Assembly (NCBI GenBank): GCA_003104905.1
Contig: PQAS01000021.1
Coordinates: 4,112 to 68,111, forward strand
DNA length: 64,000 nt
Source of the DNA: Candidatus Methanoperedentaceae archaeon
Lineage (GTDB): Archaea; Halobacteriota; Methanosarcinia; Methanosarcinales; Methanoperedenaceae
Direction: 5' to 3'
The notes below the pieces were generated by a model. That model ran no database searches, had not been told where the DNA came from, and saw nothing but the letters and a program-made list of their open reading frames with translations. The translations under genes and the position numbers were made by a program. Shown one piece after another: positions 2,615 through 41,508 of the stretch; the stretch's first letter is position 1; every line of letters begins with the position of its first letter.

Positions 2615-2706
2615 AACAAACCCCCATTATATTACTTAACGGCCTTCTAATAAATGTTTTTCGGTTCGTGACCTAAAATATATCTCTACTCAAATACAAT
2701 GTAATT

Positions 2707-3858: not shown

Positions 3859-3897
3859 AATTAACCCTGTGATCTAAAAATTAACAACAAATTCGTA

Positions 3898-3923
3898 CGA
3901 ACTCCAAACAATCATGGAGTTCG
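3898..3923. terminator. Hairpin between convergent genes
   Basis: Perfect 9-bp stem CGAACTCCA / TGGAGTTCG with an 8-base loop. It lies between the ends of the sugar dehydrogenase gene and the 26-haem gene. T-rich sequence follows on both strands, so it could end transcription from either side. Confidence 0.6.
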
Positions 3924-3949
3924 TTTAGTTAGTTGTTTTCCAGATGTTT

Positions 3950-9516: not shown

Positions 9517-9530
9517 TTTATATATCCCCT

Positions 9531-10913: not shown

Positions 10914-11070
10914 TTCTCTCTACCTCAGTTATTTATCTCAATCCATACAGTCTTCAATCCTTTATTCTGACACTCATTTTTAGATAGTAATGAGTCGACA
11001 AGTCGTTATTATTGTCTAAATAACCTCACACCAATCCGTTTTTCCCATTTAAAAGATGGAATCTATTTTG

Positions 11071-11082
11071 GTATATATAAAA
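11071..11082 (-). promoter_or_regulatory. TATA-box promoter of the 8h-4 / subtilase / 26h-A unit
   Basis: The minus strand carries TTTTATATATAC preceded by a purine-rich BRE-like stretch. A start about 25 bases downstream would leave a 5' leader of roughly 130 bases before the 8h-4 ATG. Confidence 0.5.
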
Positions 11083-11227
11083 TCTTCTGTTTGTTCAGTA
11101 AATCAAAAATAAACACAAAATATACCGTTTTTCTCAAAAAAAAGCAACTACGCCACCTACAGCTAAGTTAAACGCATTCATGTCCCATCTATAGTCTAAT
11201 TCCTAAATTATCGCCTGAACGCTGATG

Positions 11228-11277
11228 ACACGGATTACGCGGATTTTCACGCATCCTGAATCAGCGTCAATCCGTGT
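11228..11277. repeat. Imperfect inverted repeat 3' of 26h-B
   Basis: Arms ACACGGATTACGC and GCGTCAATCCGTGT pair with one bulge around a 23-base centre. It lies seven bases beyond the stop of 26h-B. It may be a transcript-end hairpin or a dispersed intergenic repeat unit. Confidence 0.55.
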
Positions 11278-11283
11278 TCCAAT

Positions 11284-14200
11284 TTATTCATTACCTGCAT
11301 GGCACAGCAGACAATTAGCACCTCCTGCCCCCGGTTTGATAGCTGCGTTGTGGAAGTCAACGTTAGCTAGTGTTAAGATGCTGGCATCTTTGTGACATGT
11401 ATCGCACTCACTGGTTAAAGTCTCTGCATGCGGGCGGCTTGTTAGTGTACTGATATTCACAGGCGTTCCCCATTCAGGATCGTTTGTATACGGGCCGTTA
11501 TGGCAGAGGATACAGGCGGATGTATTGATCGTACCGGAATGTCCGTATGGCGTTGCCGTCGTATCAGTTACATCTTTGATATAATGGTTTACAGTCCCGA
11601 CACCGGTGCCGCCGATATACATTCCATTATTGTCATGGCACTGGGTGCAGTTAACCGCGGTAATTACATCCTGTCCTGCCTGCTGATGCTCCGCTACGAT
11701 AGGAGCGCCGTATAATCCCGTCCCGTCATGGCAGTTTTGACAGTTTAAAGGTGTCTTGTAACTGGCGGGATGACCGCCCGGTTGAGCGCCGTCTCCGTGA
11801 CATGCCCAGCATTTCTTGTTTTCTGCATCGACCGTTGCAGATGCGCCGCTGTTCACAGCCTTATGACCTGCAGCGCTGTTATTCATTGCACTGAAATTGA
11901 CAAGTTTGGGTGCTGATGTACTACTTGCATCGTGGCAGGACTTACAATCAGGTCCGCCCTGTATGCCGGGATCAAGACTGTGTGTATAGTTCACGGGCGT
12001 TCCTGAAAGAGCCCCGTTTATGCTGTGGCAGGACTGGCAATTACTGTCTTTGAATCCTCTCATACTGCCGTGATACGCAGATAACAGTACTGGCGGAACC
12101 GGAGACCATTGAGCGCCCCTATAATATGAGCTGCCATTATAATGGCAGCCGGCACACCACTCGGTATTTGTGAGTGCTCCGTTCCTGGTATTGACCGGAT
12201 TATCCATTAATGCAGCCGCCTTTCCGAGTGATGCGGTGTTATGCCTGGTATCGTTGTGGCAGTAGATACAGGCGCTGCCTTCGGATGTCCAGTAGCTTCC
12301 CCATATTGTGCCATTTAAGATATTGGAGGAATGCTTCAGATCATCAGGGACCTTCGGGGATGAAAATCCATTCATTCCACTGCCCTGGTGGCAATCCGTG
12401 CAATTGACTGAATTACTGCTCAAAGATGTTGACCATGTGGCATTCTTTTGCAGATATTGTACAGGATGTATATTCCTGGCAGAACTCAGGTGGCAGCCGG
12501 CACAGTCCACGCTATTATTATGTCTATCTTTTCCGGTATGGCATGTCTTGCACAGACTGGTAGTGACAGATGGCTTTTCGATCGTTGAGAAATGTATCCT
12601 GCCTGTATTATGGCAGTTGGCATTTGTACAATCAGGATTTGATGCCATTGCCGTATGGTTCTGTATGGAAGAGTTCCATGCGGCATTATTCATTTCCGTG
12701 CTGAACGCACTTGTTCCTTTATGGCAATAGGAGCAGTTTGAACTTGCGCCCGAATTATAGGGAGCATCTCCGGTCTTATTATCACCGTAATGGCTCACGC
12801 TTGCATATATTGACTTCGGGCTTCCCGGATCAGTATTTGCGAGGATCATCTCGGTTTTGTTATGGCAATTCACGCACGAATCAATGACATTGGTATAACT
12901 CTTTGTCCTGATATCCGAAGAATTCGAGAAGTGCGCATCAACGACCAGAGCGCCGAACTTTGATTGTATATGGCAGTTGCCGCAATTCTTTGGCATGTTA
13001 TAGCCATTCGGATGAGCATCCGATGGAAGCTCTTCCTCATTGACAATGCCGTCAGCACTTACTGAATCATTCGTGTGGCATCCCCAGCATATCTTATTAT
13101 CAGCTCTTAGCGAGGTTGTGCCGCCTGTATTCAGGTTGATATGGATAGAATCGGATGAATTTATCTTGCTGACATCTACCATTTCAAGAGACTTTCCTAA
13201 ATCATGGCAGCTTATGCAGTCTTTGCCTCCTCCGCCTGATATACCTGTAACATGGGCATCCTGGGAATGGCAGCTTATGCAATTCGTATTTGATTTGTGA
13301 GTGGCTGCCCTGCTTGTGTGGCATGTCCAGCACTGCTCATTTTCCGTAACATCATTACTGGAACTTGCCGCATTATAGGGTTTGGAATTATTATGTGCAG
13401 GTCCGTGGCATGCAAGACAGGGTACGGAATCCTCAAGACTGAACATCGTGCCATTATGAGCCGCAAGAGGTTTCTTGACGTCATAGTTGTATGAATATAC
13501 GGATATGTTGTTTCCGGCCGCTAAGTTAGCAAGAGTGTTGATATTCATCACGTTACTATTGAGTACAGGATGACATTGCGGACAGCCGGGCATCTTTGGT
13601 ATTCCATTCCCTGTACCTGTGATATATGCCCAATTTCCATGACAGAATTCACATGTCCTGTTCTTGTGCACATCCGCAGTCTTTCCATAGACTTTTCCAT
13701 CTGTTCCTTTTGCCGTTTTGTTGCTTGCGTAACCTGTATGGCATCCGGGACATCCCGCATTCTGGTGGTTATTCTTTTTGTGCGCCGAGGCTGCCCTTGT
13801 TGAAGTCTGGCCGTATCTATCCGTATACGGCGATAATGGTTTTGCTCCCGTAACTGTAGAGGTTTTATGGCAATTATCCTGGCCGCAGCCTCCAAATGCT
13901 TTTCCTCCCGCTTCTATTTGCAGATTCGTACGATGATTTACACTGAGGTTATCGGTCAGATTTGCCTCTATTCTCCAGGTTCCGTAGTCAGTATCCGTAC
14001 TGCTTGTGAAATCCGGATATGTATCATATGATACGCTTGCCAGACCATTCTGCCGGGTAATGTTATATTTAGTGGCCTTTAATACCCCTGCGCCGGAATA
14101 TATCTTAAATACAATATTAGCTCCTGATACCGGCTTTCCGCTGTCATCCAGCAGCAGTGCAAATCCTGTAAAATTCGCGCTAAGACTGGCATCGTTTGCC

Positions 14201-14388
14201 TTGCTCACGTAAGGAGCAAAGAGAGAATATCTGCTGCTTGATACATGCAGCTCCTGGGCAAAAGCGTTCGAAGAAAGGATAATTATTGAACACAGTAAAG
14301 CCAATAGTATCCTCAAGTTCTTTGTATCTTCAACCACTCCTTTTTCACTCATTTTTATTTTTTTTCTATCCCTGATTAATCCAATCAT
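11284..14388 (-). CDS. 26-haem c-type cytochrome (26h-B)
   Basis: 1034 residues from the ATG at 14388, which has GGAGGAG 11 bases upstream. The frame is open to 14445, but that longer version would overlap the upstream cytochrome and lacks such a site. Order: signal peptide ending near SNAFA, an Ig/invasin-like domain, then haems. I count 24 CxxCH plus two CX4CH motifs (CGQDNCH at 13867-13887, CTNANCH at 12610-12630), giving 26 sites that line up with 26h-A. The last seven haem sites (20-26) are nearly identical to those of 26h-A in both protein and DNA. It lies 19 bases after 8h-3 and is presumably co-transcribed with it. An exported electron conductor is inferred. Confidence 0.93.
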   Translation of the reverse strand: MIGLIRDRKKIKMSEKGVVEDTKNLRILLALLCSIIILSSNAFAQELHVSSSRYSLFAPYVSKANDASLSANFTGFALLLDDSGKPVSGANIVFKIYSGAGVLKATKYNITRQNGLASVSYDTYPDFTSSTDTDYGTWRIEANLTDNLSVNHRTNLQIEAGGKAFGGCGQDNCHKTSTVTGAKPLSPYTDRYGQTSTRAASAHKKNNHQNAGCPGCHTGYASNKTAKGTDGKVYGKTADVHKNRTCEFCHGNWAYITGTGNGIPKMPGCPQCHPVLNSNVMNINTLANLAAGNNISVYSYNYDVKKPLAAHNGTMFSLEDSVPCLACHGPAHNNSKPYNAASSSNDVTENEQCWTCHTSRAATHKSNTNCISCHSQDAHVTGISGGGGKDCISCHDLGKSLEMVDVSKINSSDSIHINLNTGGTTSLRADNKICWGCHTNDSVSADGIVNEEELPSDAHPNGYNMPKNCGNCHIQSKFGALVVDAHFSNSSDIRTKSYTNVIDSCVNCHNKTEMILANTDPGSPKSIYASVSHYGDNKTGDAPYNSGASSNCSYCHKGTSAFSTEMNNAAWNSSIQNHTAMASNPDCTNANCHNTGRIHFSTIEKPSVTTSLCKTCHTGKDRHNNSVDCAGCHLSSARNIHPVQYLQKNATWSTSLSSNSVNCTDCHQGSGMNGFSSPKVPDDLKHSSNILNGTIWGSYWTSEGSACIYCHNDTRHNTASLGKAAALMDNPVNTRNGALTNTEWCAGCHYNGSSYYRGAQWSPVPPVLLSAYHGSMRGFKDSNCQSCHSINGALSGTPVNYTHSLDPGIQGGPDCKSCHDASSTSAPKLVNFSAMNNSAAGHKAVNSGASATVDAENKKCWACHGDGAQPGGHPASYKTPLNCQNCHDGTGLYGAPIVAEHQQAGQDVITAVNCTQCHDNNGMYIGGTGVGTVNHYIKDVTDTTATPYGHSGTINTSACILCHNGPYTNDPEWGTPVNISTLTSRPHAETLTSECDTCHKDASILTLANVDFHNAAIKPGAGGANCLLCHAGNE

Positions 14389-14407
14389 AACTTTCTTTAC
14401 TCCTCCA

Positions 14408-15769
14408 TTAATTCGTAACAGTTGAAGCATTGGTGCCATAGACACTGTTGATGGTTGCCGTATCCCCTGTCCTGGCGCTGGAACTCAAGACATTTATCGA
14501 TGTGTCAGACCAGCTGATAATCTGTGACGAACGAGTGGTGCTTCCTCTTTTGATCGTTACATTTGTCCAATTATCGTATGCAGGATCATACGTTCCGAAA
14601 CCTGAACCTGTGATCAAAACATTTGTAGAATTAACCTTTCTTGCTGAACCAATGATCACTTTTGGCACACTGACCAGCGGTTTCTTATTGCTCTCAGTGT
14701 TTCCGTCTTTCAGAGCATATATTGAATATAATCCCCTGGTCAAAGCCGGTATTGATACGATAATCTCTGATGAAGTAATATTTGTTGGAGTTATGGTCAC
14801 ATTATTTGTTCCATCGCTAACTACAACGACCGATGATCGTGTAACATTATCAATAGTTGTGACAAGATCGTCTCCGTATATGGTCAATACCGTAGCAGAT
14901 CCCTCAAATACTTTATTTGTGCTGAGCGAAACGATAGTTGGCACAATAAGGTCAAATCCCGGCCCCAGACTTCCCGCTACATACCAGGCATGACAGCCCT
15001 GGCAATCGTTAGGTCCGAGATGACCATAACCTGGCAATTGCGATGTATTGCTAAAATCCCACTGAATATTATGCAATGAAGCTGTACCATGGCATCTCTC
15101 GCAATACCGTATGGAGTCGGATCCATAAACACCGTTGTGTGTATCATGACACATTGAACATTTTGAAACATCCTGATTCCTGAAACCACTCAAATTTCCC
15201 AGCCTGTGATGGGTTTTATTATTAAAGGCTATAGGGGGACTCGCTGTGGAATTCTCTTCATGGCATGATTCACAGCCGCCCCATTTCCTGCCGCTTGTCT
15301 GGTTGATTACTTTGAATTTGGTGTCGGGTGTCATAATGGACGGGGCATAGGTTGGTATAGTGTGCCCGTCGTCATAATTATCCACCAGGCTGCCATGACA
15401 TGTTTTGCAATGCCCGTCTAATGCAGCCTGTGTCTCATGATGCGGTCTTCGGATAGCTATCCCATTAAAAGTCGTATCATGACACTGTATGCAGTCCCTG
15501 ATCAAAGTTATCCCGCTTCCATCTGGAAGCACAGGGTGGCAGTTCGTGCATCCGTATTCTCCTGTTGGCACCAGATTGTGATGCGCTCCCGGTACTCCCA
15601 ATGCATGACATCCTCTGCAATTGTTTTCTGCAATATTAGAGAACAATGTGTCATAAACTCCCATTTTTTGATCGACGGGAGGAGGAGAAACAGCATATGC
15701 CAGACCTACCAATATCAAGTAAACGGTGATCGGCATTAAATAGTATAACAAGAAATGCTTTTTATCCAT
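14408..15769 (-). CDS. Octahaem cytochrome c with IPT/TIG tail (8h-3)
   Basis: 453 residues from the ATG at 15769, which has GGGAG nine bases upstream; an open frame to 15856 adds residues with no signal-peptide logic. The signal peptide runs to about LAYA, followed by SPPPVDQ and GVYDT. Eight CxxCH motifs follow (CRGCH, CTNCH, CIQCH, CKTCH, CESCH, CSMCH, CERCH, CQGCH), then two IPT/TIG domains. It is the closest paralogue of 8h-4, sharing for example YGSDSIRYCERCHG and LHNIQWD. It forms a two-gene module with 26h-B immediately downstream and, unlike the 8h-4 module, has no protease gene between them. Confidence 0.92.
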   Translation of the reverse strand: MDKKHFLLYYLMPITVYLILVGLAYAVSPPPVDQKMGVYDTLFSNIAENNCRGCHALGVPGAHHNLVPTGEYGCTNCHPVLPDGSGITLIRDCIQCHDTTFNGIAIRRPHHETQAALDGHCKTCHGSLVDNYDDGHTIPTYAPSIMTPDTKFKVINQTSGRKWGGCESCHEENSTASPPIAFNNKTHHRLGNLSGFRNQDVSKCSMCHDTHNGVYGSDSIRYCERCHGTASLHNIQWDFSNTSQLPGYGHLGPNDCQGCHAWYVAGSLGPGFDLIVPTIVSLSTNKVFEGSATVLTIYGDDLVTTIDNVTRSSVVVVSDGTNNVTITPTNITSSEIIVSIPALTRGLYSIYALKDGNTESNKKPLVSVPKVIIGSARKVNSTNVLITGSGFGTYDPAYDNWTNVTIKRGSTTRSSQIISWSDTSINVLSSSARTGDTATINSVYGTNASTVTN

Positions 15770-15829
15770 AATTCCTATCTCCCAAGTGTTATTCTCATTT
15801 CCATAATTAAAATAATCAGTAAAAAATAA

Positions 15830-15868
15830 TATGAAAGAAGTGTGTTTTTCCGCCACTCTTCTTTCATA
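15830..15868 (-). terminator. Terminator-like hairpin after 8h-2
   Basis: 11-bp perfect stem TATGAAAGAAG / CTTCTTTCATA with a 17-base loop, seven bases beyond the stop of 8h-2. On the minus strand it is followed by TTATTTTTT. Its stem shares GAAAGAAG with the hairpin behind 8h-1. Confidence 0.65.
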
Positions 15869-15874
15869 ATTTTC

Positions 15875-17233
15875 TCATCTCGTTATCACTTTTGATGCCG
15901 AGCCTGTTGTTGTTGTTACAGTCAACGTGTCGCCTACTGCGGCTGCCGGTGATGTGGTCTTCTTTGCCTTTATCTGGGTAGTACTCCAGCTTGTGATGCT
16001 GTCAGAATAGAATATTCTTCCATCTGCTTTCTTAATAGTCACATACTGGTTGGCATTCTGTGCCGGCTGGGTTCCAAATCCGGTACCTGTGATGGTTATT
16101 ACGCCATTTCTCAACTTCGCAGATGAGATCGTCACCGGTGAGACAACAGTCAGAGCAGACAATTTGCTTGATGTTGAATCAGTGGCGCCGGTCTTCACAA
16201 CCTGTATCTGGTGTACACCTGCTGCTAATGCCGGAACAGTCACAACTATCTCAGAGTTTGTTACTGATGTAGGTGTAATGCCAGTTCCATCCACTTTTAC
16301 CGTAGTCGTGTAGGTATCCTGCACAAAGTTGTCACCCGCTATAGTCACAACAGTAGCCTGATTTGCGGTCAATACTGATGGAGTAAAGCTTGATGCATCT
16401 ATGACTATTGGTCCTCCGAATGGCGGTATTTCACCTGCGTCCCAGAATGCGTGGCATCCGTTGCAGTCCCAGTTGGCTCCGATATGACCGGATCCTGCCG
16501 TTCCGTTCGTAGAAGAATAGTTGTTCTGGATATTGTGGATTGTAGCTACACTGTGGCAGTCTTCACATCTTCTGATATCTAATGCAGTACCCTGCGCGAC
16601 ATGGCACCATGTGCACTGATATCCCTGTGTTACGCCAAAGATCTCATTGTGATGTGAATCCACGTTAGACAATATATCAGGAGTAGAACTGACGTTGCCC
16701 TGATGACAGGCTTCACAACCGCCCCAATATCTTCCGCTGGTTGAATTGAATATCTTGTAGCTTGTATCCGGAGTTACGATTGACACATTATAACTTGGTA
16801 TATAATGTCCATCATTATAGCTGTCAATAAATCCGCCGTGACAGGCTTCACAATTTCTCTGCTGCGCAGGAGCTGTATTGTGATGCGGTCTTCCGGCCAC
16901 AAGGGCGGGATTGGCATAGAACGCCGAACCATTATGGCAGGCTATGCAATTCCTGTCTACCAATACTGACTGTCCGTTCGGACCGGATACTACCGGATGA
17001 CAGGCCGTACACCCATATTCTCCCGTTTGTACAAGGAGGTGATGCCTGTTGGGCACACCTCCAAGGTATGTCGAATTGTGGCAATTTCTGCAATTACTTT
17101 CGGCGAGTTGGTTGACTGATGTATCGTATATGCCAATCGCCTGGTTCGCGGGCGGCGGTGGTATAAATGCCATCGCTATCGCAGCCAGCGCTATAATAGC
17201 GACGACTGAGACTAATATATTTCTTTTATTCAT
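15875..17233 (-). CDS. Octahaem cytochrome c with IPT/TIG tail (8h-2)
   Basis: 452 residues. Signal peptide, then IPPPPANQ and GIYDT, eight CxxCH motifs (CRNCH, CTACH, CIACH, CEACH, CEACH, CTWCH, CEDCH, CNGCH), and two IPT/TIG domains ending in SKVITR. GGAGG lies four bases before the ATG. It pairs with 8h-1: their TIG tails are almost identical while the haem domains differ more. Haem 6 to 7 spacing is short here compared with 8h-1. Hairpins with T-tracts follow both genes, which suggests that 8h-1 and 8h-2 are at least partly separate transcripts. Extracellular electron transfer is inferred from the signal peptide and haem density. Confidence 0.92.
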   Translation of the reverse strand: MNKRNILVSVVAIIALAAIAMAFIPPPPANQAIGIYDTSVNQLAESNCRNCHNSTYLGGVPNRHHLLVQTGEYGCTACHPVVSGPNGQSVLVDRNCIACHNGSAFYANPALVAGRPHHNTAPAQQRNCEACHGGFIDSYNDGHYIPSYNVSIVTPDTSYKIFNSTSGRYWGGCEACHQGNVSSTPDILSNVDSHHNEIFGVTQGYQCTWCHVAQGTALDIRRCEDCHSVATIHNIQNNYSSTNGTAGSGHIGANWDCNGCHAFWDAGEIPPFGGPIVIDASSFTPSVLTANQATVVTIAGDNFVQDTYTTTVKVDGTGITPTSVTNSEIVVTVPALAAGVHQIQVVKTGATDSTSSKLSALTVVSPVTISSAKLRNGVITITGTGFGTQPAQNANQYVTIKKADGRIFYSDSITSWSTTQIKAKKTTSPAAAVGDTLTVTTTTGSASKVITR

Positions 17234-17363
17234 TTTACCTCCTATATTTTATTTTTTGTCATTATGGAACGTGCCTGGAAAATTCGCTTTTATTGCTCCA
17301 TAAATAACTGTAATGCTATGTGTTTTGTATTATGCCAATCATATAATTATAATCAAAAATTTT

Positions 17364-17389
17364 AAAGAAGAGATATAAATCTCTTCTTT
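17364..17389 (-). terminator. Terminator-like hairpin after 8h-1
   Basis: Perfect 11-bp stem AAAGAAGAGAT / ATCTCTTCTTT with a 4-base loop, 15 bases past the stop of 8h-1, followed on the minus strand by AAAATTTTTG. It separates 8h-1 from 8h-2. Confidence 0.65.
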
Positions 17390-17403
17390 CATGGTTTTAT
17401 TTC

Positions 17404-18921
17404 TTAACTTCTCGTTATCACTTTTGATGCCGAGCCTGTTGTTGTTGTCACAGTCACGGTATCGCCTATTGCGGCTGCCGGTGATGTGGTCTTCCTCGCC
17501 TTTATCTGTGTAGTGCTCCAGCTTGTGATGCTGTCAGAATAGAATATCGTTCCATCCGGTTTCTTAATAGTCACATACTGGTTGGCATTCTGTGCCGGTT
17601 GTGTTCCGAATCCGGTACCGGTGATGGTTATAGTGCCTGATTTCAACTTCGCAGATGAGATCGTTACCGGTGAGACAACGGTCAGAGCAGACAATTTGCT
17701 TGTTGTTGAATCAGCGGCGCCAGTCTTTACAACCTGGATCTGGTGTACACCTGCTGCTAATGCCGGAACAGTCACATCTATCCGGGAGTTTTCTACCGAC
17801 GTAGGTGTAATGTCAGTTCCATCCACTTTTACCGTAGTCGTGTAGGTATCCTGCACAAAGTTGTCACCAGTTATTGTCACAACAGTAGCCTGACCTGCGG
17901 TTAATACCGATGGGGTAAAGCTGGATGCATCTATGACTATTGGTCCTCCGAATGGCTGGGCTTCACCTGCGTTCCAGAATGCATGGCATCCGTTACAGTC
18001 CCAGTTGGCTCCGATGTGACCATAGCCCTGCTGTCCATTCGTGCCGGAATAATTGAACTGGATGTTATGTATGGACATTACGCTGTGACACTTCTCGCAC
18101 GCAGTACCATTGAGGGCATCAACGGACGAATTCCTGAGCTCCAGGAGTCGAGCGCCGCTTGAACCATTGTTGAGAGGTCCGCAGCAACCCTGTCCCCAGG
18201 CTCCGGTTCCATTAATTCTTAATACACTGGTTGGTGATACGGCCACGTTAATAACATGGCACCAGTTGCATGCAGCACCTAATGTTCGGTCTGTTTGATG
18301 ACCTACGCCAGCGCTATTGCCAAGAATTTCTCCATGGTGATTGTCGTGGTTGTTTAAAACAATTGGCGATGTAGACGATGTGTTCTGATGGCATGCCAGA
18401 CATCCGCCCCAATACCTGCCGCTGGTGGCATTATACACCCTGTTATCGGCGTATGGGGTTACAAGGGATGTGTTGTATGAAGGAACATAGTGCCCATCAT
18501 CATAGTCGGCGATGAAACCGCCATGGCAATCACTGCATTGTCTTGTTTGTGCAGCCACTGTATTGATGTGATGCGGTCTGCTGATGTTCAATCCTGTCGG
18601 GTTTGCATAGAATGCCGTACCATTGTGGCAATTTATGCAGTTTCTGTCTACCAATACTGACTGTCCGTTCGGACCGGACACTACCGGATGACAGGTCGTA
18701 CAGCCATATTCTCCTGATTGCACAAGGAGATGATGCCTGTTGGGCACGCCTCCAAGAGACGTTGAATCATGGCAATTTCTGCACAATGGCTCATTGTAAG
18801 TTGCTATTCCCGTGTCGTATATCCCTATGTTCTGGTTTGCCGGCGGCGGCGGTACTAGCGCCCACGCCAATCCAACAAACGCCAGAAAGACGATAGCTGC
18901 TGCTATATATAATTTTTTCAT
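17404..18921 (-). CDS. Octahaem cytochrome c with IPT/TIG tail (8h-1)
   Basis: 505 residues. Signal peptide, VPPPPANQ and GIYDT, eight CxxCH motifs (CRNCH, CTTCH, CINCH, CSDCH, CLACH, CNWCH, CEKCH, CNGCH), then two IPT/TIG domains. GGGAG lies seven bases before the ATG. Relative to 8h-2 it carries about 45-50 extra residues between haems 6 and 7 (about 18102-18255), rich in Gly/Asn/Ser and containing adjacent cysteines (GQGCCGP) that do not form a haem motif. It is the first gene of the island in the direction of transcription, behind a good TATA promoter. Likely secreted. Confidence 0.92.
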   Translation of the reverse strand: MKKLYIAAAIVFLAFVGLAWALVPPPPANQNIGIYDTGIATYNEPLCRNCHDSTSLGGVPNRHHLLVQSGEYGCTTCHPVVSGPNGQSVLVDRNCINCHNGTAFYANPTGLNISRPHHINTVAAQTRQCSDCHGGFIADYDDGHYVPSYNTSLVTPYADNRVYNATSGRYWGGCLACHQNTSSTSPIVLNNHDNHHGEILGNSAGVGHQTDRTLGAACNWCHVINVAVSPTSVLRINGTGAWGQGCCGPLNNGSSGARLLELRNSSVDALNGTACEKCHSVMSIHNIQFNYSGTNGQQGYGHIGANWDCNGCHAFWNAGEAQPFGGPIVIDASSFTPSVLTAGQATVVTITGDNFVQDTYTTTVKVDGTDITPTSVENSRIDVTVPALAAGVHQIQVVKTGAADSTTSKLSALTVVSPVTISSAKLKSGTITITGTGFGTQPAQNANQYVTIKKPDGTIFYSDSITSWSTTQIKARKTTSPAAAIGDTVTVTTTTGSASKVITRS

Positions 18922-33080: not shown

Positions 33081-33271
33081 ACTCTGATATTTCACAGGAT
33101 GTAAAAAAACTTACCTGAGATGGGAAATTCTAATGTCTCAAAATTTTTGTCAAGGTGAACAAAGTTATATATATTATGATGACAATCATTATTGGCATGT
33201 AAATTTCATGGGTATGGCTAATGAAATTTATAATTATCGCATTATTTAAATCGAAGGAGGATATGGAAATA

Positions 33272-36200
33272 ATGAGGCGGAAAGAAAATAACTTATGGAA
33301 TGTTTTAAGAATTGTGATCATACTGCTGCTATTCGGGATGGCAGCAGGAACTGTGAATGCGGCAACGCAGGCTGGCGTGGGTGCAGCAGATGCGGGCAAT
33401 AATATTACTTTGAGCGTCAATACGGCCACGTCATTAACCAGCGTACCGATCCTTTTAACGATTAACATGACAAATGCTTCTGCAAACGGCAATGCTTTCA
33501 ACATAAATGTAACAGGCGCGCCGACTGTCAATGTTAATAATTCCGGTTTTGACAATACAACAACAAATGTTACAAATATGGCTAATATCACTTTTCCCAT
33601 AGTCAGTATTGTTCCTACGGGTTTCTTCAGCGTCACCATTACAAATCCCCAGAATGTTTCTGAAACCGCAACGCTAACCGGATTCAAGTTCGTTAATTCC
33701 ACAGCAATAATAGCCACTAACACTACTGTAACATATTACAATGGCAGTATTCCCACTTCTATTCCAACAAGTGTATATTACTTCTTCAATGGCACTTCGA
33801 TCAAGATTTCAGTAAAAACAATTGCAAAAATGGATAATGTCACAGCCAATTATACAAACGTTACAGGCGGGAAAGGATTCAATATCACGGGTCAAAATCA
33901 GAGCGGCGATTGGTACTATAATATTACCAACGTAACTGCGACCACTGCAGCGGCTGCAACTCCGTCCATCATCAATATCAACTTAACCGTGAATAACCAG
34001 AACCTCACAGTTATTCAGCCATTCGTAGCCCTGATGAATTTCAACCCATCAAATTTGGATCCGACACTTGGCGGGGCAACAACAGACTGGACAACCATCA
34101 CCGACTTTACAAATATTTTAAATCTGACATTTGAGAAAGCTTCTCTTGGAAAGATTGTATTTAATTCTCCTATTAATTTGGCCGATTACACTACCGCTCT
34201 TGCACTTGCTAACCTCGGGCAAAACCTGAAACTTTCCCAGAATAACATAAGCCTGAACAGCGCAGCGCAGGCACTGGCTGCTATGAATGTAAGCGCAAGC
34301 CTGACTATGTATGGCCTGTATCTCCCCGGTTTACCTGCTATACTGAGCGAAGGACAGATGATCGTACAACAGGGCAACGATACTGGCGGGGAAGTATCCG
34401 GTCTCAATTATAATACAGCCACCAGGGATCTTACATTTATTGTTAGCGGCTGGTCTGATTATACGATTTTTGCTCTCACTAATGAATCCGTATCTGCACA
34501 GGCAGACAGTGTAAGCAAGTTATCCATGAGGTTGTTAGGCAAACCAAACACGATTTATATCGTAAATTCGAATAGATCCAATGAAAGTGTGAACGGCAAT
34601 TCCGTTCCATACAATCTCACAACGGATGCTAATGGCACGATTGGCTTTAATGTGACCAGCAACCTGATCGGAACAGCAAATGTCTCTGCGACGAACGGAA
34701 CGAATGTTTCGTACAATAATAAAGTGGTCTTTACCCAGGTATTCGGGACAAATGTTACACTTACCAGCATTTCAGGATTGAACGCTTCAACAAGACCGGG
34801 AATAAATGCGACCTACCTGCTTCTCCTGACAAATGCAGGAGAATCATCGGACACTTTTAACATGACAATAGCCGGAGATGCATCCTCGGTACAGTCCTTA
34901 AATATCACATCTGTTCTCCTGGGTGCAGGAGCCTCAAGAACTATATCGCTTAATGTTACAAATACTACGCAAGGGATAGTCCGTATAAATGTTACTGCGA
35001 CCTCGGCAGCGAACTCCAGCACAAAAGCGTTTGTTAATACTTCAACCTATGTGACTTTATCAAATCCTGATGTGCCTGTTGCTTATTGGGGTAATGTTAC
35101 AGTTAACGGTGTCCTGAAATCCGCAAATGTATCCGTGTATGGTTCAGACGGCGTTAAAGTTGCAAATACCACAAGCAATGCTGACGGCTCGTATCTGATA
35201 TCAGTACCATGGGATGATCTCGATACAGTTCAGGATGAAGGCGTGAACGTTAGTGAAACCATAACTTTCAATGTGAATAATATATCCGTGCATTCAAGAG
35301 TGATCGGTTTTAGCGGAACGAATAATAATCTCGATCTTGCGATGAACAACGGAACATTAACAGGGAGTATTATCAAGAAGGGTACAATTATCGGGATAAG
35401 CGGTGCCTCACTCAATTTCACAAATGCCACATTTGGTTCAGTGGTTACGACAACAGATGCATTGGGAATTTATACTGTTTCGCTTTATCCGGTCAAATAC
35501 ACGATCAATGTTTCAAAGGCAGGATATTCAAGCAACAATACCATCAATGCAACAGTTGTGAGCGGCAGTTCCACCATAATTCCGGATATTTTGCTTTCAG
35601 CCAATACTGTCACAGTAACAGCCAACAGGACTGTAGGGTCAGCAGACTCAGGTCAGAATGTCAGCTTCAACCTGACCGTGGTAAATACAGGCGACAATGC
35701 CACATTTAGTGTGTTAACTTCAAAAACCAATGCATCAATGGTCGTTACAAATAATACGATACCGGGTACACTGCTTCTGAATACCACTACATCCACAGGA
35801 TATGTTGTTGTGGAAGTAAATAATACCAACTTTGGGGGCTGGCCGTTGACAATAACCATAAGCAACATTTCCCAGTCAAAGAATGCAAGCGTTACACTGA
35901 ATGCGATCATCAGGAATGCAAGCGCAATTTACACCAATGTCAGCAGCACTGTTGACAATAATTCAAACGTTAGCGGGGGCGCAACTCTTGTAAATTCGAA
36001 TATCACTGAGGGTGCAAACATTATCGGCGCAACCATCGTAAACTCGAATGTAACTAATGGAGCAGATGTCCAGGGCAACTCAACGCTTATAACGGATTCA
36101 ACTGTGACGGGCGACCTTACAGTGATCACTGATAACTCAGTTATCAAGGGTACATACAGTGATTCCAATGTTGATAATTCCACTATCGGAGGCTCAACTG

Positions 36201-37636
36201 TAGATAGTTCGAACCTTACCACTTCAATTATAACCGGTAATGCATTGGTCATAAATTCTACTCTGACCGGTGCGACAGTTTCCAACTCCACACTCGATAA
36301 TGTGACCGTGAGCGGCACAAGTACGATAACGGATGTTGCCAGCCTGAGCGATATTATCCTTTCAGGCGTAACAGTAATCGGCAGCCCGGCTTATGAATAT
36401 GAAGGCGTAATTTCAGCCACAAGTACCGGATGGGCGCTGTACAAGACCATAAATTTCACACAAGTTTATGAAAGCGTACGCATATCGCAGCTGGTAATTG
36501 AACAGAGCCAGGATAAGATTATTCCGAAAAATATACTTACCCCGGTAAATGACAGCAGTATGGGTACTTCGATGGGCTTTGCAATGTCTGTTCTTCTCAC
36601 AAATGATATGAAAGTGAACATAACGGAGACTTACATAAATCCTGATGGTGCAGCATTATCTTCAGGAACAAAGCTTGGAAATTTCATTGTCGTCCGGAGC
36701 AATGATACGGCTGCATCTAATGTGACAAACCATACGCTGAGATTATATTTCGACACTGATCCGGCCACTTACAATGGCGGTGTTGCGATGTATTATTATA
36801 ATACGACCACCCTGGCCTGGGAAAAACTCACCACAACAGCCAGCGGAAATCTGAGCGGCAGATGGTATGTGGAAGCGTCGCCAAACCACTTCAGCACCTT
36901 CGCATTGGCGGGTACAACCACAAGCAGCGGTGACGGCAGCACCAGCGGTGGAGGCGGCGGAGGCGGCGGTGGAGGCGGAGGCGGCAAATCCGCTGAGAAC
37001 CAGTCCAATATCGAAGTAATTGAAAAATATGATGTGCAGATATTAAAGGATGCTTTAACATCCATCATGTTCAGGGATCCCAAGAATCCGATATTGTTCG
37101 TCAATATCACAGGCAACGCCAGCCTTGGTGTAGTCACGACATCGATAGAAGTATTGAAGGGTACTTCGACAACTGTGAGTGCAGCGCCGACCGGGCTTGT
37201 ATATAAGAATGTAAACATCTGGGTCGGAACTTCCGGCATGGCAGTTCCAAAGAACATCAAGGAAGCCCGTATCAAATTCAAAGTAGATAACTCATGGATG
37301 AGTACGAACGGTGTTGCCTCAAAAGATATCGTGCTGTTGAAATGGGACGGAAGCAGCTGGATACAGCTTGAGACAAAGGAATTGTCCAAAGACAGCACCA
37401 ACACATACCTGGAAGGAAAGACCAATTCCTTCTCACCATTTGCAATAACCGCAAAGTTGGCAGCTGAAAAACCCACTGTCACAGGAACACCAACTCCTGC
37501 CGGGTCGCCTACACCTGCAGGTACACCTCCTGCGCCGGCCGAGGAGTCGAGTATTATGACATGGATAATCGGCCTGATCATTTTAGTGATCATCGGTGCT
37601 GCCGTGTATTTCCTGGTGGTGAAAAAGAATGAGTGA
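33272..37636 (+). CDS. Giant Thr/Asn-rich surface protein with PGF-pre-PGF domain
   Basis: 1454 residues from ATG 33272, 11 bases after GGAGG; an ATG at 33263 is only two bases from that site. A signal peptide (LRIVIILLLFGMAAGTVNA) is followed by several N-glycosylation-rich beta domains, a carboxypeptidase-regulatory-like module (about 35080-35345), a stretch of short Asn/Ser/Val repeats resembling a beta-helix (about 35950-36330), a poly-Gly linker, a PGF-pre-PGF domain (about 37000-37460), a Pro-rich linker and a C-terminal membrane helix with a basic tail. Many N-x-S/T sequons are visible. Likely an S-layer-associated or adhesion protein. It precedes a multihaem cytochrome by 89 bases. 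Confidence 0.9.
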   Translation: MRRKENNLWNVLRIVIILLLFGMAAGTVNAATQAGVGAADAGNNITLSVNTATSLTSVPILLTINMTNASANGNAFNINVTGAPTVNVNNSGFDNTTTNVTNMANITFPIVSIVPTGFFSVTITNPQNVSETATLTGFKFVNSTAIIATNTTVTYYNGSIPTSIPTSVYYFFNGTSIKISVKTIAKMDNVTANYTNVTGGKGFNITGQNQSGDWYYNITNVTATTAAAATPSIININLTVNNQNLTVIQPFVALMNFNPSNLDPTLGGATTDWTTITDFTNILNLTFEKASLGKIVFNSPINLADYTTALALANLGQNLKLSQNNISLNSAAQALAAMNVSASLTMYGLYLPGLPAILSEGQMIVQQGNDTGGEVSGLNYNTATRDLTFIVSGWSDYTIFALTNESVSAQADSVSKLSMRLLGKPNTIYIVNSNRSNESVNGNSVPYNLTTDANGTIGFNVTSNLIGTANVSATNGTNVSYNNKVVFTQVFGTNVTLTSISGLNASTRPGINATYLLLLTNAGESSDTFNMTIAGDASSVQSLNITSVLLGAGASRTISLNVTNTTQGIVRINVTATSAANSSTKAFVNTSTYVTLSNPDVPVAYWGNVTVNGVLKSANVSVYGSDGVKVANTTSNADGSYLISVPWDDLDTVQDEGVNVSETITFNVNNISVHSRVIGFSGTNNNLDLAMNNGTLTGSIIKKGTIIGISGASLNFTNATFGSVVTTTDALGIYTVSLYPVKYTINVSKAGYSSNNTINATVVSGSSTIIPDILLSANTVTVTANRTVGSADSGQNVSFNLTVVNTGDNATFSVLTSKTNASMVVTNNTIPGTLLLNTTTSTGYVVVEVNNTNFGGWPLTITISNISQSKNASVTLNAIIRNASAIYTNVSSTVDNNSNVSGGATLVNSNITEGANIIGATIVNSNVTNGADVQGNSTLITDSTVTGDLTVITDNSVIKGTYSDSNVDNSTIGGSTVDSSNLTTSIITGNALVINSTLTGATVSNSTLDNVTVSGTSTITDVASLSDIILSGVTVIGSPAYEYEGVISATSTGWALYKTINFTQVYESVRISQLVIEQSQDKIIPKNILTPVNDSSMGTSMGFAMSVLLTNDMKVNITETYINPDGAALSSGTKLGNFIVVRSNDTAASNVTNHTLRLYFDTDPATYNGGVAMYYYNTTTLAWEKLTTTASGNLSGRWYVEASPNHFSTFALAGTTTSSGDGSTSGGGGGGGGGGGGGKSAENQSNIEVIEKYDVQILKDALTSIMFRDPKNPILFVNITGNASLGVVTTSIEVLKGTSTTVSAAPTGLVYKNVNIWVGTSGMAVPKNIKEARIKFKVDNSWMSTNGVASKDIVLLKWDGSSWIQLETKELSKDSTNTYLEGKTNSFSPFAITAKLAAEKPTVTGTPTPAGSPTPAGTPPAPAEESSIMTWIIGLIILVIIGAAVYFLVVKKNE

Positions 37637-37644
37637 GAATTCGG

Positions 37645-37660
37645 GGGCTTTATGCCCCAT
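37645..37660 (+). terminator. Short GC hairpin after the giant surface protein
   Basis: GGGGC / GCCCC stem with TTTAT loop, followed by ATATTTTATT. A weak terminator or attenuator before the cytochrome gene. Confidence 0.45.
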
Positions 37661-37725
37661 ATTTTATTGTCATAAAATTTTGGTAACTAAAAAGGAGATT
37701 AAAGGAAACGAAGGAGGATAAAATT

Positions 37726-40449
37726 ATGAGAAAAGGAATTATATTAGGAATAGGGATTTTGATAATACTGCTTGCGCTGGCAGGGACAGGAAGTGCGAAA
37801 ACTGCTTATGGAGTTAGTTGCGCCTATTGCCATCCGGGCGGTGCTCCCCCCGCATTAACTGCAGAAGGAATGAATTATAAATATAATCATGCATTTGATG
37901 GCACAGCAATCCCTTCAGTTGTTACGGGTTGCCTTGAATGTCATTCAGATTTGACTTCATTCTTGCCATTGACGTCAAATGGCTCGTTTTATAATGAAAC
38001 CCACAGATACAACGCCACAACCCTGGCAGCTAATATTTCCGCAGCGCCTGGATGTGCCAACTGCCATGGGAATGTTAGCGCGGACAATTTCACAATTAAA
38101 ACAGGCACTCCAACTTACACGAACTCTTCATTGTGCAAAACCTGCCATGAGAAGAAATACAATGATTGGTACAGCACAATGCACCGCGTCATGTTGACAA
38201 CAAACACTTCAGGTGCGGTGATGAATCTCACGGTTCCTGATGGTAAGAACTGGACCACTACGAATGTATCGTATATGATCGTGGGTAAAACATCATTCTA
38301 TTACTTGAACGAGACTGGTCAATTCTTCTCAAAATATTATACTGCAAATAGTACATTTGCTTCTTACAGCGGAAGTTATTCCTGCGGAGGCTGCCACACC
38401 ACAAATTATAGTGCAACTGGCAACCAGAGCGGTTTATCAGGTATAGTAGGAACGTGGACTGAAGAAGGAATCACATGCGAGAACTGCCACGGGCCCGGAG
38501 GCAACGGCCATCAGGTAACGATCAATAAGACCGGTGGAGATTGCAACAAATGCCATTACGGTGACAGCAGACAGGGACAGGCATTGACGAACAAACATGC
38601 TACCGGCCCTGCCGAAGAATCCATGTCCCGCAGCTGTACCCAGTGCCATTCTCCGTATGACAGGTATATGACAGGATATGCGGCATCACTTGAAACTGCT
38701 GCAAATGTAACATGTTTCGTATGCCACAATCCTCACGGTACCACAGACGACAAGTATGCAGCTCTGCTCTCGCCAGGAGGTTTCAACAATACCACCTATG
38801 CCGAAGTTGGAGACGTGAAATTAGGCTTCTTTAACGCAACTGCGAGCAATGTCAGCAGGTTTAACAATGGAAGCACGTTCACAGGAACGAATGCTTCGCT
38901 TACAGCAGGGAACGACATATATGATAATCTGAGCCTTATCAATTTGCTGTATACTGGAAACTCCCCAAAAACCTATGGTACCAGTTTGAAAGATGGCGGC
39001 TATGGTAATGGAAGCATTGACCTGACAGGCCGCCCCGATTCTGAGAAACTGTGCTCATTGTGCCATTACAGGCATGGTATTGCCCATATAAGAGAGGTGA
39101 ACCTTACTCACGGCAGAAATGATGCATCAGACGCCGAATGGGCAACATGCACGGACTGCCACAATTCGGGCAGCAAGGCCGATCATTCATTCGATGCATA
39201 TAATGCAACGAACTATCCAAAGAGTACATGTTCAAAGGGCACTAATTGCCATGTTACAAGTTCGGAGAACGTGACTTTGAGCAACCTTTCAATAGTGCCG
39301 ATAGAAACTGAATGGAATGCAAGCCTGCATAATGAAAAGGAAAATGGGGTTTATTACACCAGCAATTATTATAACAACAGTTCATGCAATAAATGCCATT
39401 CGCCGACAAATTGGGATCCTGCGAATGAAAGTGGTCTAGTAGCTCAAAAGGACTTCAAGGGTATCACATGCGCCGTCTGTCATGACATCCACAATATGGG
39501 TGGCTCGATCAACTCATCCGGCTTAAAATATAGCTGGTACAATCGTGATGCCAGTTATTCAAGCTCAAGCAACAGATACAGCGCCAATTACACATTGATG
39601 GCTAATACCACAGAACTGTGCGGCAACTGTCATTCTAATGTCAAAATAGATGGACAAGGGCCAGGCTGGAACGGAACAAACAGCAACCCTACAAGTCCAC
39701 ACGGCTGGCCGGCAAAGGATATATTCGTTGGTTCATGGAAGCAGTCAGGCATGTTGAAATACGAATGCATTGATTGCCACATGTATATCAACAAGACAAA
39801 TGCTACCGGATATCAGCTGGTTGATGCCAATAAGACGACAGGACACAGTTTTGCTGTGGACGCCACAGGACTACAGAACACCTCAAAATGTAATGTATGC
39901 CATGAAAATGGAACAGCTATCGATACTATCCAGGTCGTGGTAAATAAGATACAGGCAGACACCATTGCAAAGCACACAACTGTTAATGCGACAGTTACTG
40001 CGGCACTGGAGAATTATAAGAGTTATGGCGGTATAAAGACCCTCAGCGCCAGTAAGATCGCTCAGGCATACTGGAATGTAAATCTTGTAAAGTCCGATGA
40101 AAGCTGGGGCGTGCATGACCCTATAGGAACCAATCAGCTTCTTGACGACGCTCTTGTCCTTGCAGCGGCATCAAATAGTTCACTTGGTATGGCTGTGACC
40201 TCAAATGTGGACCTGATAACAGGCTGGAACCTGGTATCTCTTAACGGTACACCCGCAGACACCACGCCATCATCGGTGATGAACTCGGTGAAAACCAACA
40301 TAACCGTGGTATGGACATATAATGCCACAGGAGCGGTATGGGAACTGTATGATCCTTTAATGCCCTCTGCGCTCAATACTCTTAAGAGCATGGTGCAGGG
40401 CAAAGGATACTGGATATACGCAACACAGGGCTGTAAGTGGACTGTTTAA
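37726..40449 (+). CDS. 17-site multihaem c-type cytochrome
   Basis: 907 residues; GGAGG eight bases before the ATG. Signal peptide ends near GTGSA. I count 16 CxxCH motifs and one CX5CH (CSKGTNCH, 39229-39252). The segment CKTCHEKKYNDWYSTMH with downstream CGGCH and CENCHGPGG resembles cytochrome c554-type arrangements. After the last haem (CNVCH) comes a helical region and a domain with LITGWNLVSLNGTP and KGYWIYATQG, a type seen at the C-terminus of other archaeal surface proteins. No membrane anchor is seen, so the protein is secreted or bound to its neighbours. It lies between two PGF-pre-PGF surface proteins, which suggests a role in moving electrons through the S-layer. Confidence 0.93.
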   Translation: MRKGIILGIGILIILLALAGTGSAKTAYGVSCAYCHPGGAPPALTAEGMNYKYNHAFDGTAIPSVVTGCLECHSDLTSFLPLTSNGSFYNETHRYNATTLAANISAAPGCANCHGNVSADNFTIKTGTPTYTNSSLCKTCHEKKYNDWYSTMHRVMLTTNTSGAVMNLTVPDGKNWTTTNVSYMIVGKTSFYYLNETGQFFSKYYTANSTFASYSGSYSCGGCHTTNYSATGNQSGLSGIVGTWTEEGITCENCHGPGGNGHQVTINKTGGDCNKCHYGDSRQGQALTNKHATGPAEESMSRSCTQCHSPYDRYMTGYAASLETAANVTCFVCHNPHGTTDDKYAALLSPGGFNNTTYAEVGDVKLGFFNATASNVSRFNNGSTFTGTNASLTAGNDIYDNLSLINLLYTGNSPKTYGTSLKDGGYGNGSIDLTGRPDSEKLCSLCHYRHGIAHIREVNLTHGRNDASDAEWATCTDCHNSGSKADHSFDAYNATNYPKSTCSKGTNCHVTSSENVTLSNLSIVPIETEWNASLHNEKENGVYYTSNYYNNSSCNKCHSPTNWDPANESGLVAQKDFKGITCAVCHDIHNMGGSINSSGLKYSWYNRDASYSSSSNRYSANYTLMANTTELCGNCHSNVKIDGQGPGWNGTNSNPTSPHGWPAKDIFVGSWKQSGMLKYECIDCHMYINKTNATGYQLVDANKTTGHSFAVDATGLQNTSKCNVCHENGTAIDTIQVVVNKIQADTIAKHTTVNATVTAALENYKSYGGIKTLSASKIAQAYWNVNLVKSDESWGVHDPIGTNQLLDDALVLAAASNSSLGMAVTSNVDLITGWNLVSLNGTPADTTPSSVMNSVKTNITVVWTYNATGAVWELYDPLMPSALNTLKSMVQGKGYWIYATQGCKWTV

Positions 40450-40457
40450 GTCCACTT
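40435..40457 (+). terminator. Terminator/attenuator hairpin overlapping the cytochrome stop codon
   Basis: Perfect 9-bp stem AAGTGGACT / AGTCCACTT, 5-base loop, followed by TTAATTTTTT. The stop codon of the cytochrome gene lies at the loop and stem edge. It precedes the PGF-CTERM gene by about 25 bases. Confidence 0.65.
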
Positions 40458-40479
40458 TTAATTTTTTAGGAGTGACAGA

Positions 40480-41508
40480 ATGAAAAAATGTATTTTATTT
40501 TTTTTAGTATTGCTTTTGATCCCCTCAGTGCAGGCTATGCCGAGTGCTACGTCATACTGGGGTATCGTGAGTATTGACGGGATCACAAAATCAAATGCGC
40601 TGGTAACAGTGTATGATTCTTCAGGAATAGAAGTTGCAAGCGCAACGAGCCTTCAGGATGCCACATACCAGGTAACAGTGAAATGGGATGATTTGTCCAC
40701 CCCGGCTATTGATGAAGGTGTTGTGGATAACGAAATGATCACTTTCAAGGTAGACGGCAAGACAGCAGGATCGAGGGCAATTGACGCTAAAGGGACAAAC
40801 AATAAACTTGATCTTTCTGTAACAGATTCCTCCTCATCGGGAGGCTCTTCAGGAGGCTCTTCGGGAGGCGGCGGGGGAGTAGTCTCTGCGGAACCTTATG
40901 AAAACATTATGAAAAAAGAATCAAAGGATGGACCCCTGGCAAAAGATATTTCAAAAACATTCAGTTTCACAACTCCGGAATTACCCGTTTCCCAGATTGC
41001 CATAACCAGCAATATCAATACGGAAACGATAAGTGTCCAGGTCGAGCTTCTTAAGAATAGATCAACTCTGGTAAAAGAAGATGCGCCCGGAAATGTATAT
41101 GAATATCTGAATATCTGGGCGGGTACGTCAGGTTTTGCAGTGCCCAAGAATATTAAGGAGGCGGTTGTAAAATTCAAACTTGAGAGTTCCCGGATAACAT
41201 CAAAAGGCTTAACAGATGGGGATATTGCAATGCTGAAATGGAACGGGACACAGTGGGTCTCACTTGTTACTGAGAAAACAAACAGTGATAGCAAGTACAC
41301 GTACTTTGAGTCAAAGACAAACGCATTTTCCCCATTTGCAATATCAGGTGTTAAAGGGACAACAGTGTCAACAGCGGTGCCTGAGGCGGCCGAAGTGACA
41401 GCGCAAAAACCGGAAGCAACTGCGACCACGAAAGAAGCGCCTGGATTCGGTTTAGTTCTTGCATTTGCGGGATTGATGGCGGTAGTTTTAAGAAAGAGAA
41501 GCAATTAG
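40480..41508 (+). CDS. PGF-CTERM-anchored surface protein with PGF-pre-PGF domain
   Basis: 342 residues. The signal peptide ends near SVQA. An N-terminal beta module (SYWGIVSIDGITKSNA... to NNKLDLSV) matches the one inside the 33272 protein, followed by a Ser/Gly linker, a PGF-pre-PGF domain, and a C-terminal PGF-CTERM signal: APGFGLVLAFAGLMAVVLRKRSN-type sequence with PGF, hydrophobic helix and basic tail. PGF-CTERM proteins are cut by archaeosortase A and attached to membrane lipid. It is the third gene of the surface cluster and the one most likely to anchor it. Confidence 0.92.
   Translation: MKKCILFFLVLLLIPSVQAMPSATSYWGIVSIDGITKSNALVTVYDSSGIEVASATSLQDATYQVTVKWDDLSTPAIDEGVVDNEMITFKVDGKTAGSRAIDAKGTNNKLDLSVTDSSSSGGSSGGSSGGGGGVVSAEPYENIMKKESKDGPLAKDISKTFSFTTPELPVSQIAITSNINTETISVQVELLKNRSTLVKEDAPGNVYEYLNIWAGTSGFAVPKNIKEAVVKFKLESSRITSKGLTDGDIAMLKWNGTQWVSLVTEKTNSDSKYTYFESKTNAFSPFAISGVKGTTVSTAVPEAAEVTAQKPEATATTKEAPGFGLVLAFAGLMAVVLRKRSN

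What the first reader, a model, noticed from the sequence alone, without database searches (positions are those of the whole stretch)
33272..41508. Surface cluster that sandwiches a 17-haem cytochrome between two proteins sharing modules
The giant protein (33272), the cytochrome (37726) and the PGF-CTERM protein (40480) run on one strand. The first and third share two modules: the YWG-V ... KSNA-type beta module and the PGF-pre-PGF domain. The middle gene has haems but no anchor. This looks like a designed assembly that holds a secreted cytochrome in the S-layer.
Basis: partly seen in the sequence, partly recalled or inferred. Interest (0 to 1): 0.6.

Follow-up and report, generated by a model that had tools for sequence, protein, structure and literature searches.

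The report
Cytochrome with plug-and-socket surface anchor
In a methane-oxidising archaeon, a secreted many-haem protein that has no anchor of its own ends in a small tail domain, and the next gene encodes a membrane-anchored partner; the two modules occur together so strictly across relatives, and in so many other archaeal surface gene pairs, that they look like a previously undescribed plug and socket for fixing proteins to the archaeal cell surface.

Summary
In a Ca. Methanoperedens contig three same-strand genes lie between opposite-strand neighbours: A (giant, C-terminal TM), B (secreted cytochrome, 16 CXXCH plus one CX5CH) and C (PGF-CTERM-like). A and C share a ~90-aa YWG beta module and a PGF-pre-PGF domain. 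A profile of this tail hits 12 of 31 genomes of the genus, and a YWG profile hits the same 12. All 14 tailed cytochrome loci with visible neighbours, including one in another family, have an adjacent YWG gene, although order and copy number vary. Six longer-tailed homologues with full context have none. A accompanies only 7 of the 14. Broader profiles over 238 Methanosarcinia genomes show non-haem surface proteins with C-terminal GWN domains followed directly by FYG/YWG membrane proteins (55 of 112 GWN loci; 40 of 85 without seed genomes), plus GWN-GWN-FYG fusions. Best reading: a passenger-tail/anchor-socket pair, here displaying a cytochrome. Linkage is shown; binding is inferred. 'In the S-layer' is only indirectly supported, by one YWG + S-layer + dockerin protein elsewhere in the genome. 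I found no earlier description in the papers searched.

The parts
33263..37636 (+). Gene A: giant surface protein (signal peptide, Thr/Asn/Ser-rich body, YWG module, beta-helix-like repeats, PGF-pre-PGF, C-terminal TM). Start may be 33221, 33263 or 33272
35075..35347 (+). YWG (FYG-type) module in A, putative second socket
   Evidence: HMM hit aa 619-709, E 5e-37
36995..37453 (+). PGF-pre-PGF domain of A (TIGR04213)
   Evidence: E 3.1e-46
37644..37658 (+). GGGGC..GCCCC hairpin plus T-rich run after A
   Evidence: present in relatives with A
37726..40449 (+). Gene B: secreted cytochrome, 16 CXXCH + 1 CX5CH, no membrane anchor
39229..39252 (+). CX5CH motif (CSKGTNCH), possible 17th haem site
   Evidence: kept in 11 of 12 relatives
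40192..40446 (+). GWN tail of B (aa 823-907), putative plug, ends exactly at the stop codon
40435..40457 (+). RNA hairpin whose 5' arm is the last codons of B, followed by a T run and C's ribosome site
   Evidence: z -3.7 here; -2.4 to -6.1 in 7 of 8 other sequences folded
40480..41508 (+). Gene C: signal peptide, YWG module, Gly/Ser linker, PGF-pre-PGF, PGF-CTERM-like anchor
40546..40824 (+). YWG module of C (aa 23-115), putative socket for B's tail
   Evidence: HMM hit E 6e-42
40891..41349 (+). PGF-pre-PGF domain of C (TIGR04213)
   Evidence: E 6.3e-44
41425..41490 (+). PGF-CTERM-like sorting and membrane segment of C
   Evidence: 17.3 bits, below cut-off 24.5; genome encodes two archaeosortase A homologues

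Best explanation
B is exported as a free multihaem cytochrome. Its C-terminal GWN domain acts as a plug that binds, probably non-covalently, the N-terminal YWG module of C. C is fixed to the membrane by its C-terminal sorting/TM segment, with PGF-pre-PGF as spacer or processing domain, so it holds the cytochrome at the cell surface in trans. Where A is present it offers a second, larger YWG socket. The cytochrome is one passenger of a wider archaeal two-gene surface-display scheme in which unrelated secreted proteins carry C-terminal GWN domains and the next gene encodes an FYG/YWG membrane protein. Shown here: anatomy, linkage, phyletic match, reuse of the pair on non-haem proteins, and fusions. 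Inferred: physical binding, its strength, A's role, and electron transfer through the surface.
For: (1) GWN-tail and YWG profiles hit exactly the same 12 of 31 genomes. Over 238 genomes of the class, strong tail hits are those 12 plus G069 and a contig-end fragment in G031; strong YWG hits are the same 12 plus G069. (2) An adjacent YWG gene is found at 14 of 14 tailed loci despite reversed order (G015, G024), tandem B-C-B-C (G019) and a different family (G069). (3) In G019 C keeps YWG but has lost PGF-pre-PGF, so YWG is the constant part. (4) Long-tailed B homologues with full context (6) have no YWG neighbour. (5) In other surface proteins GWN is at or near the C-terminus and the FYG gene follows at -28 to +97 bp; 55 of 112 loci, 40 of 85 without seed genomes. 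(6) Single-chain fusions GWN-GWN-FYG in G043 and G080. (7) In G018 a cytochrome and a non-haem protein share the same C-terminal region (78% over 364 aa; last ~185 aa nearly identical), so the tail moves between passengers. (8) Mantel r 0.87 over 38 pairs, 0 of 5000 permutations.
Against: No binding data and no usable structure: AlphaFold models of B and C had mean pLDDT 27 and 34. Linkage and the Mantel correlation also follow from inheritance as a cassette. Tail type changes only about 3 times on the cytochrome tree, giving 2-3 independent contrasts. About half of the wider GWN loci have no FYG neighbour, including most ~300-aa double-GWN proteins. The wide profiles were seeded partly from adjacent pairs, although the count excludes those genomes. 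Hairpins after A and B leave open whether the genes share one transcript.
Confidence: 0.52

Rival explanations
1. Generic surface-domain cassette: GWN and FYG/YWG are ordinary beta modules of archaeal envelope proteins, and the genes travel together because they are co-expressed parts of one surface structure, without direct binding of the two modules.
For: PGF-pre-PGF alone is common (9 copies in this genome). About half of wide GWN and FYG loci are unpaired. Cassette inheritance explains the correlated distances.
Against: The 12/12 phyletic match of tail and module, 14/14 adjacency despite rearranged order, reduction of C to the YWG module in G019, and GWN-GWN-FYG fusions point to the two modules themselves.
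Confidence: 0.27
2. C (and A) is a membrane-tethered assembly or export factor that handles the GWN tail during folding or haem loading, and the mature cytochrome is then released into the matrix.
For: Strict pairing also fits a dedicated chaperone. A conserved hairpin plus T run between B and C could keep C sub-stoichiometric.
Against: Non-haem passengers use the same kind of pair, so haem loading is not the reason. C has no enzyme domain. Tail and module are sometimes fused in one protein.
Confidence: 0.1
3. The GWN tail is a self-assembly element that polymerises the cytochrome, and YWG proteins cap or tether the fibre.
For: Archaeal and bacterial multihaem cytochromes can form filaments, and this window also encodes OmcZ-like proteins.
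Against: The B-family profile finds no filament cytochrome among solved structures; it matches 6i5b, MccA and NrfA. GWN also sits on non-haem passengers.
Confidence: 0.06

Closest known systems
Cohesin-dockerin pairs (described in ANME by Chadwick 2022, PMC9012536)
   Same: A small module on a passenger and a complementary module on an anchored protein would join proteins outside the cell in trans
   Different: No cohesin or dockerin domain in A, B or C; module sequences unrelated; here the pair is encoded by adjacent genes and GWN is at the passenger's C-terminus
[quoted passage not shown]
   Same: Large multihaem cytochromes meant to carry electrons at the archaeal surface; a 22-haem S-layer cytochrome lies beside B-C at 8 relative loci, and this genome has a 73% identical copy elsewhere
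   Different: There S-layer domain and anchor are in cis; B has neither and would be anchored in trans
PGF-CTERM / archaeosortase A surface anchoring (archaeosortase substrates are lipid-anchored in haloarchaea, PMC7157517)
   Same: C ends in a PGF-CTERM-like segment and the genome encodes two archaeosortase A homologues
   Different: Only C would be a substrate; the cytochrome carries no sorting signal. In Timmers 2017 (PMC5244752) the sorting domains reported are in the same gene as the multihaem domain
OmcZ nanowire cytochromes
   Same: Secreted multihaem cytochromes for extracellular electron transfer, present elsewhere in this window
   Different: B has 16-17 haem motifs and does not match OmcZ structures

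Membership tests
PGF-pre-PGF domain proteins (TIGR04213) | Match above curated cut-off (28 bits) | tested here: met
   A 157 bits, C 150 bits
PGF-CTERM / archaeosortase A substrate (C) | PGF-CTERM model above cut-off | tested here: inconclusive
   17.3 bits vs 24.5 and 17.7 vs 18.8; PGF + TM + basic tail visible
PGF-CTERM / archaeosortase A substrate (C) | Cognate archaeosortase A in the genome | tested here: met
   Two TIGR04125 hits over cut-off in G000
ANME MHC-A/B S-layer cytochrome (B) | S-layer domain PF07752 within the cytochrome | tested here: not met
   Absent in B, present in the 22-haem neighbour L022
ANME MHC-A/B S-layer cytochrome (B) | C-terminal transmembrane helix | tested here: not met
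   Only the N-terminal hydrophobic segment in B
Cohesin-dockerin system | Dockerin and cohesin domains on the two partners | tested here: not met
   No such hits in A, B, C
Cohesin-dockerin system | Specific high-affinity binding of the two modules | not testable with these tools
   Needs a binding assay
OmcZ-type nanowire cytochrome (B) | Sequence match to OmcZ structures (8d9m, 7lq5) | tested here: not met
   No match with single sequence or family profile
GWN-tail / FYG-socket pair (proposed here) | C-terminal GWN domain plus adjacent FYG/YWG gene | tested here: met

The most novel reading that the evidence does not exclude
GWN tails and FYG/YWG modules are an undescribed plug-and-socket system, widespread in Methanosarcinia, by which secreted proteins are displayed on archaeal cells in trans; Methanoperedens uses it to fix 16-17-haem cytochromes to its surface, and interchangeable tails let one socket serve haem and non-haem passengers.
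Probability: 0.45. Interest if true: 0.76.

Novelty: new variant of a known kind. Interest (0 to 1): 0.62.

Why it matters
How extracellular cytochromes that lack any anchor or S-layer domain are kept on the surface of methane-oxidising archaea is an open question. This gives a concrete and cheaply testable answer (one tail domain, one socket domain), predicts the partner of each orphan tail, and would give a name and a function to two common, unannotated domains of archaeal surface proteins.

Tried and rejected
AlphaFold models of B and C: only two eligible sequences each, mean pLDDT 27 and 34, so no fold search was run. Viral-contig scan with the B alignment: 29 pattern matches, no relative. 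Named genome scan: one relative only. Module profiles against solved structures: no meaningful match. BLAST similarity of A to B (E 2e-10, no composition correction) rejected as Asn/Thr-rich low complexity. 'Sharing PGF-pre-PGF' alone rejected as special evidence because the genome has 9 copies. Formal phylogenetic test of tail type against neighbour: too few independent changes to reach significance. No paper describing the pair was found in four text searches aimed at sorting signals, PGF-pre-PGF and surface gene pairs. Two broader Methanoperedens searches only supplied context.

Full report
WHAT IS THERE. The window lies on an 88-kb contig (G000:C21) of a Ca. Methanoperedens genome; the closest named relative of gene B is in a Methanoperedens MAG (77% identity). 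Genes A (33263-37636), B (37726-40449) and C (40480-41508) run on the + strand between opposite-strand neighbours, with gaps of 89 and 30 bp. B has a signal peptide, 16 CXXCH motifs and one conserved CX5CH motif. Its nearest solved relatives by profile are 6i5b, MccA and NrfA-type cytochromes, and its haem motifs are all of the CXXCH kind apart from the CX5CH. A and C share a YWG module and PGF-pre-PGF. A ends in a plain transmembrane helix, C in a PGF-CTERM-like segment below the formal cut-off; the genome has two archaeosortase A homologues.

THE MISSING PIECE. B ends in an ~85-residue domain (..GWNLVSL..VVW.YN..W.LYDP..LNTL..MV.GKGYWI....CKWTV, stop) with no Pfam or NCBIfam hit. B homologues come in two kinds. 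One ends exactly in this GWN tail. The other has long tails with SdrD/SpaA, CHRD or other beta domains instead. The YWG neighbour goes with the first kind only: 13 of 13 loci in the genus and 1 of 1 in G069, a genome of another family, against 0 of 6 long-tailed loci with complete surroundings. The order is reversed in G015 and G024, and the pair is duplicated in tandem in G019, where C is cut down to the YWG module plus anchor. Gene A accompanies 7 of the 14 pairs, counting G003, where its place is taken by two genes, and G004, where it is frameshifted.

PHYLETIC TEST. Independent profile searches of whole genomes gave the tail in 12 of 31 genomes of the genus and YWG in the same 12. Across 238 genomes of the class, strong hits outside these are G069 for both and a truncated contig in G031 for the tail. 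The only strong YWG hit in the genus away from a B locus is in this genome: a 1773-aa protein with YWG, four S-layer domains and a dockerin. That is the sole indication that such sockets can sit in the S-layer.

GENERALITY. Weak hits led to other families. Secreted non-haem proteins with one or two GWN domains at or near the C-terminus are followed, typically within -28 to +97 bp, by genes with signal peptide, FYG/YWG-type module, often PGF-pre-PGF, and a C-terminal membrane segment. With broader profiles, 55 of 112 listed GWN loci had an FYG module 3' on the same strand within 2.5 kb; 40 of 85 when every genome that gave a seed is left out. With one to a few FYG loci per 2-4 Mb genome, chance would give well under one (my estimate). 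Lists were cut at 150 rows, so these are samples. Two proteins carry GWN-GWN-FYG in one chain (G043, G080). In G018 a B-family cytochrome and a non-haem protein share the same C-terminal region (78% over 364 aa, the last ~185 aa nearly identical); only the latter has a socket gene beside it. Pairwise distances of tails and modules correlate (r 0.87, 38 pairs), which is also what cassette inheritance would give.

MECHANISM. I read this as plug and socket: the tail is the address, the YWG module the receptor, C the anchor, A an optional second receptor. The anatomy and linkage are shown. Binding, its non-covalent nature and electron flow are inferred. No lysine is invariant in the YWG module alignment, so an isopeptide link looks unlikely. 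The rivals are an ordinary co-expressed surface cassette, a dedicated export or assembly factor, and a polymerisation tail; the fusions, reuse on non-haem passengers and reduction of C to YWG argue against them but do not exclude them.

EXPRESSION. A hairpin whose 5' arm is the last codons of B (W-T-V or W-V-V, stop) and whose 3' arm lies in the spacer, followed by a T run, recurs at the B ends, with matching changes on the 3' side when the codons change; it is weak in G014. A second hairpin follows A. They may terminate or attenuate transcription, so a single operon should not be assumed, and C may be made in smaller amount than B.

KNOWN OR NEW. Known surface cytochromes of these archaea carry S-layer domains and helices in cis (PMC9012536) or sorting signals in cis (PMC5244752). 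Cohesin-dockerin is the nearest known principle but not a relative. I found no description of the GWN/FYG pair in the papers searched. A possible expression link is the 16-haem extracellular cytochrome up 38.2-fold on soluble iron in Ca. M. nitroreducens (PMC10542353); whether it is the G015 member could not be checked.

Noticed in passing
3950-18921 (- strand): Cytochrome cluster with four 8-CXXCH proteins carrying a C-terminal IPT/TIG domain (two tested match OmcZ structures 8d9m/7lq5, E 1e-56 and 4e-64), two large 24-25-motif cytochromes with near-identical ends, and a subtilase like the protease reported beside OmcZ.
   Followed up: partly
40435-40457 and 37644-37658: Hairpins plus T runs at the ends of B and A. 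The B hairpin uses the last codons of the protein as one arm and shows matching changes on the other arm in relatives.
   Followed up: partly
L059 (G000:C58), 1883-7204: Same genome: a 1773-aa protein with signal peptide, YWG module, four PF07752 S-layer domains and a C-terminal dockerin.
   Followed up: partly
L027 (G003), 2459-11754: Two consecutive GWN/YWG pairs: a non-haem 1315-aa GWN protein with its YWG partner, then cytochrome B with C.
   Followed up: yes
L021/L041 (G004), gene A: A is split by a frameshift just after a poly-glycine stretch; real break or sequencing error unknown.
   Followed up: partly
L022 11037-14579 and relatives; G000:C53:165676-169215: A 22-haem S-layer cytochrome lies beside the B-C pair at 8 relative loci but elsewhere in this genome (73% identity).
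   Followed up: partly
B aa 502-509 (39229-39252): Conserved unusual CX5CH motif that may bind a 17th haem.
   Followed up: partly
3-1790 (+): Another PGF-pre-PGF protein with a C-terminal TM and no YWG module.
   Followed up: no
L067, L069-L071, L074, L077, L079, L080, L083, L085: Small (~300 aa) proteins ending in two GWN domains with no FYG neighbour; their partner, if any, is unknown.
   Followed up: no
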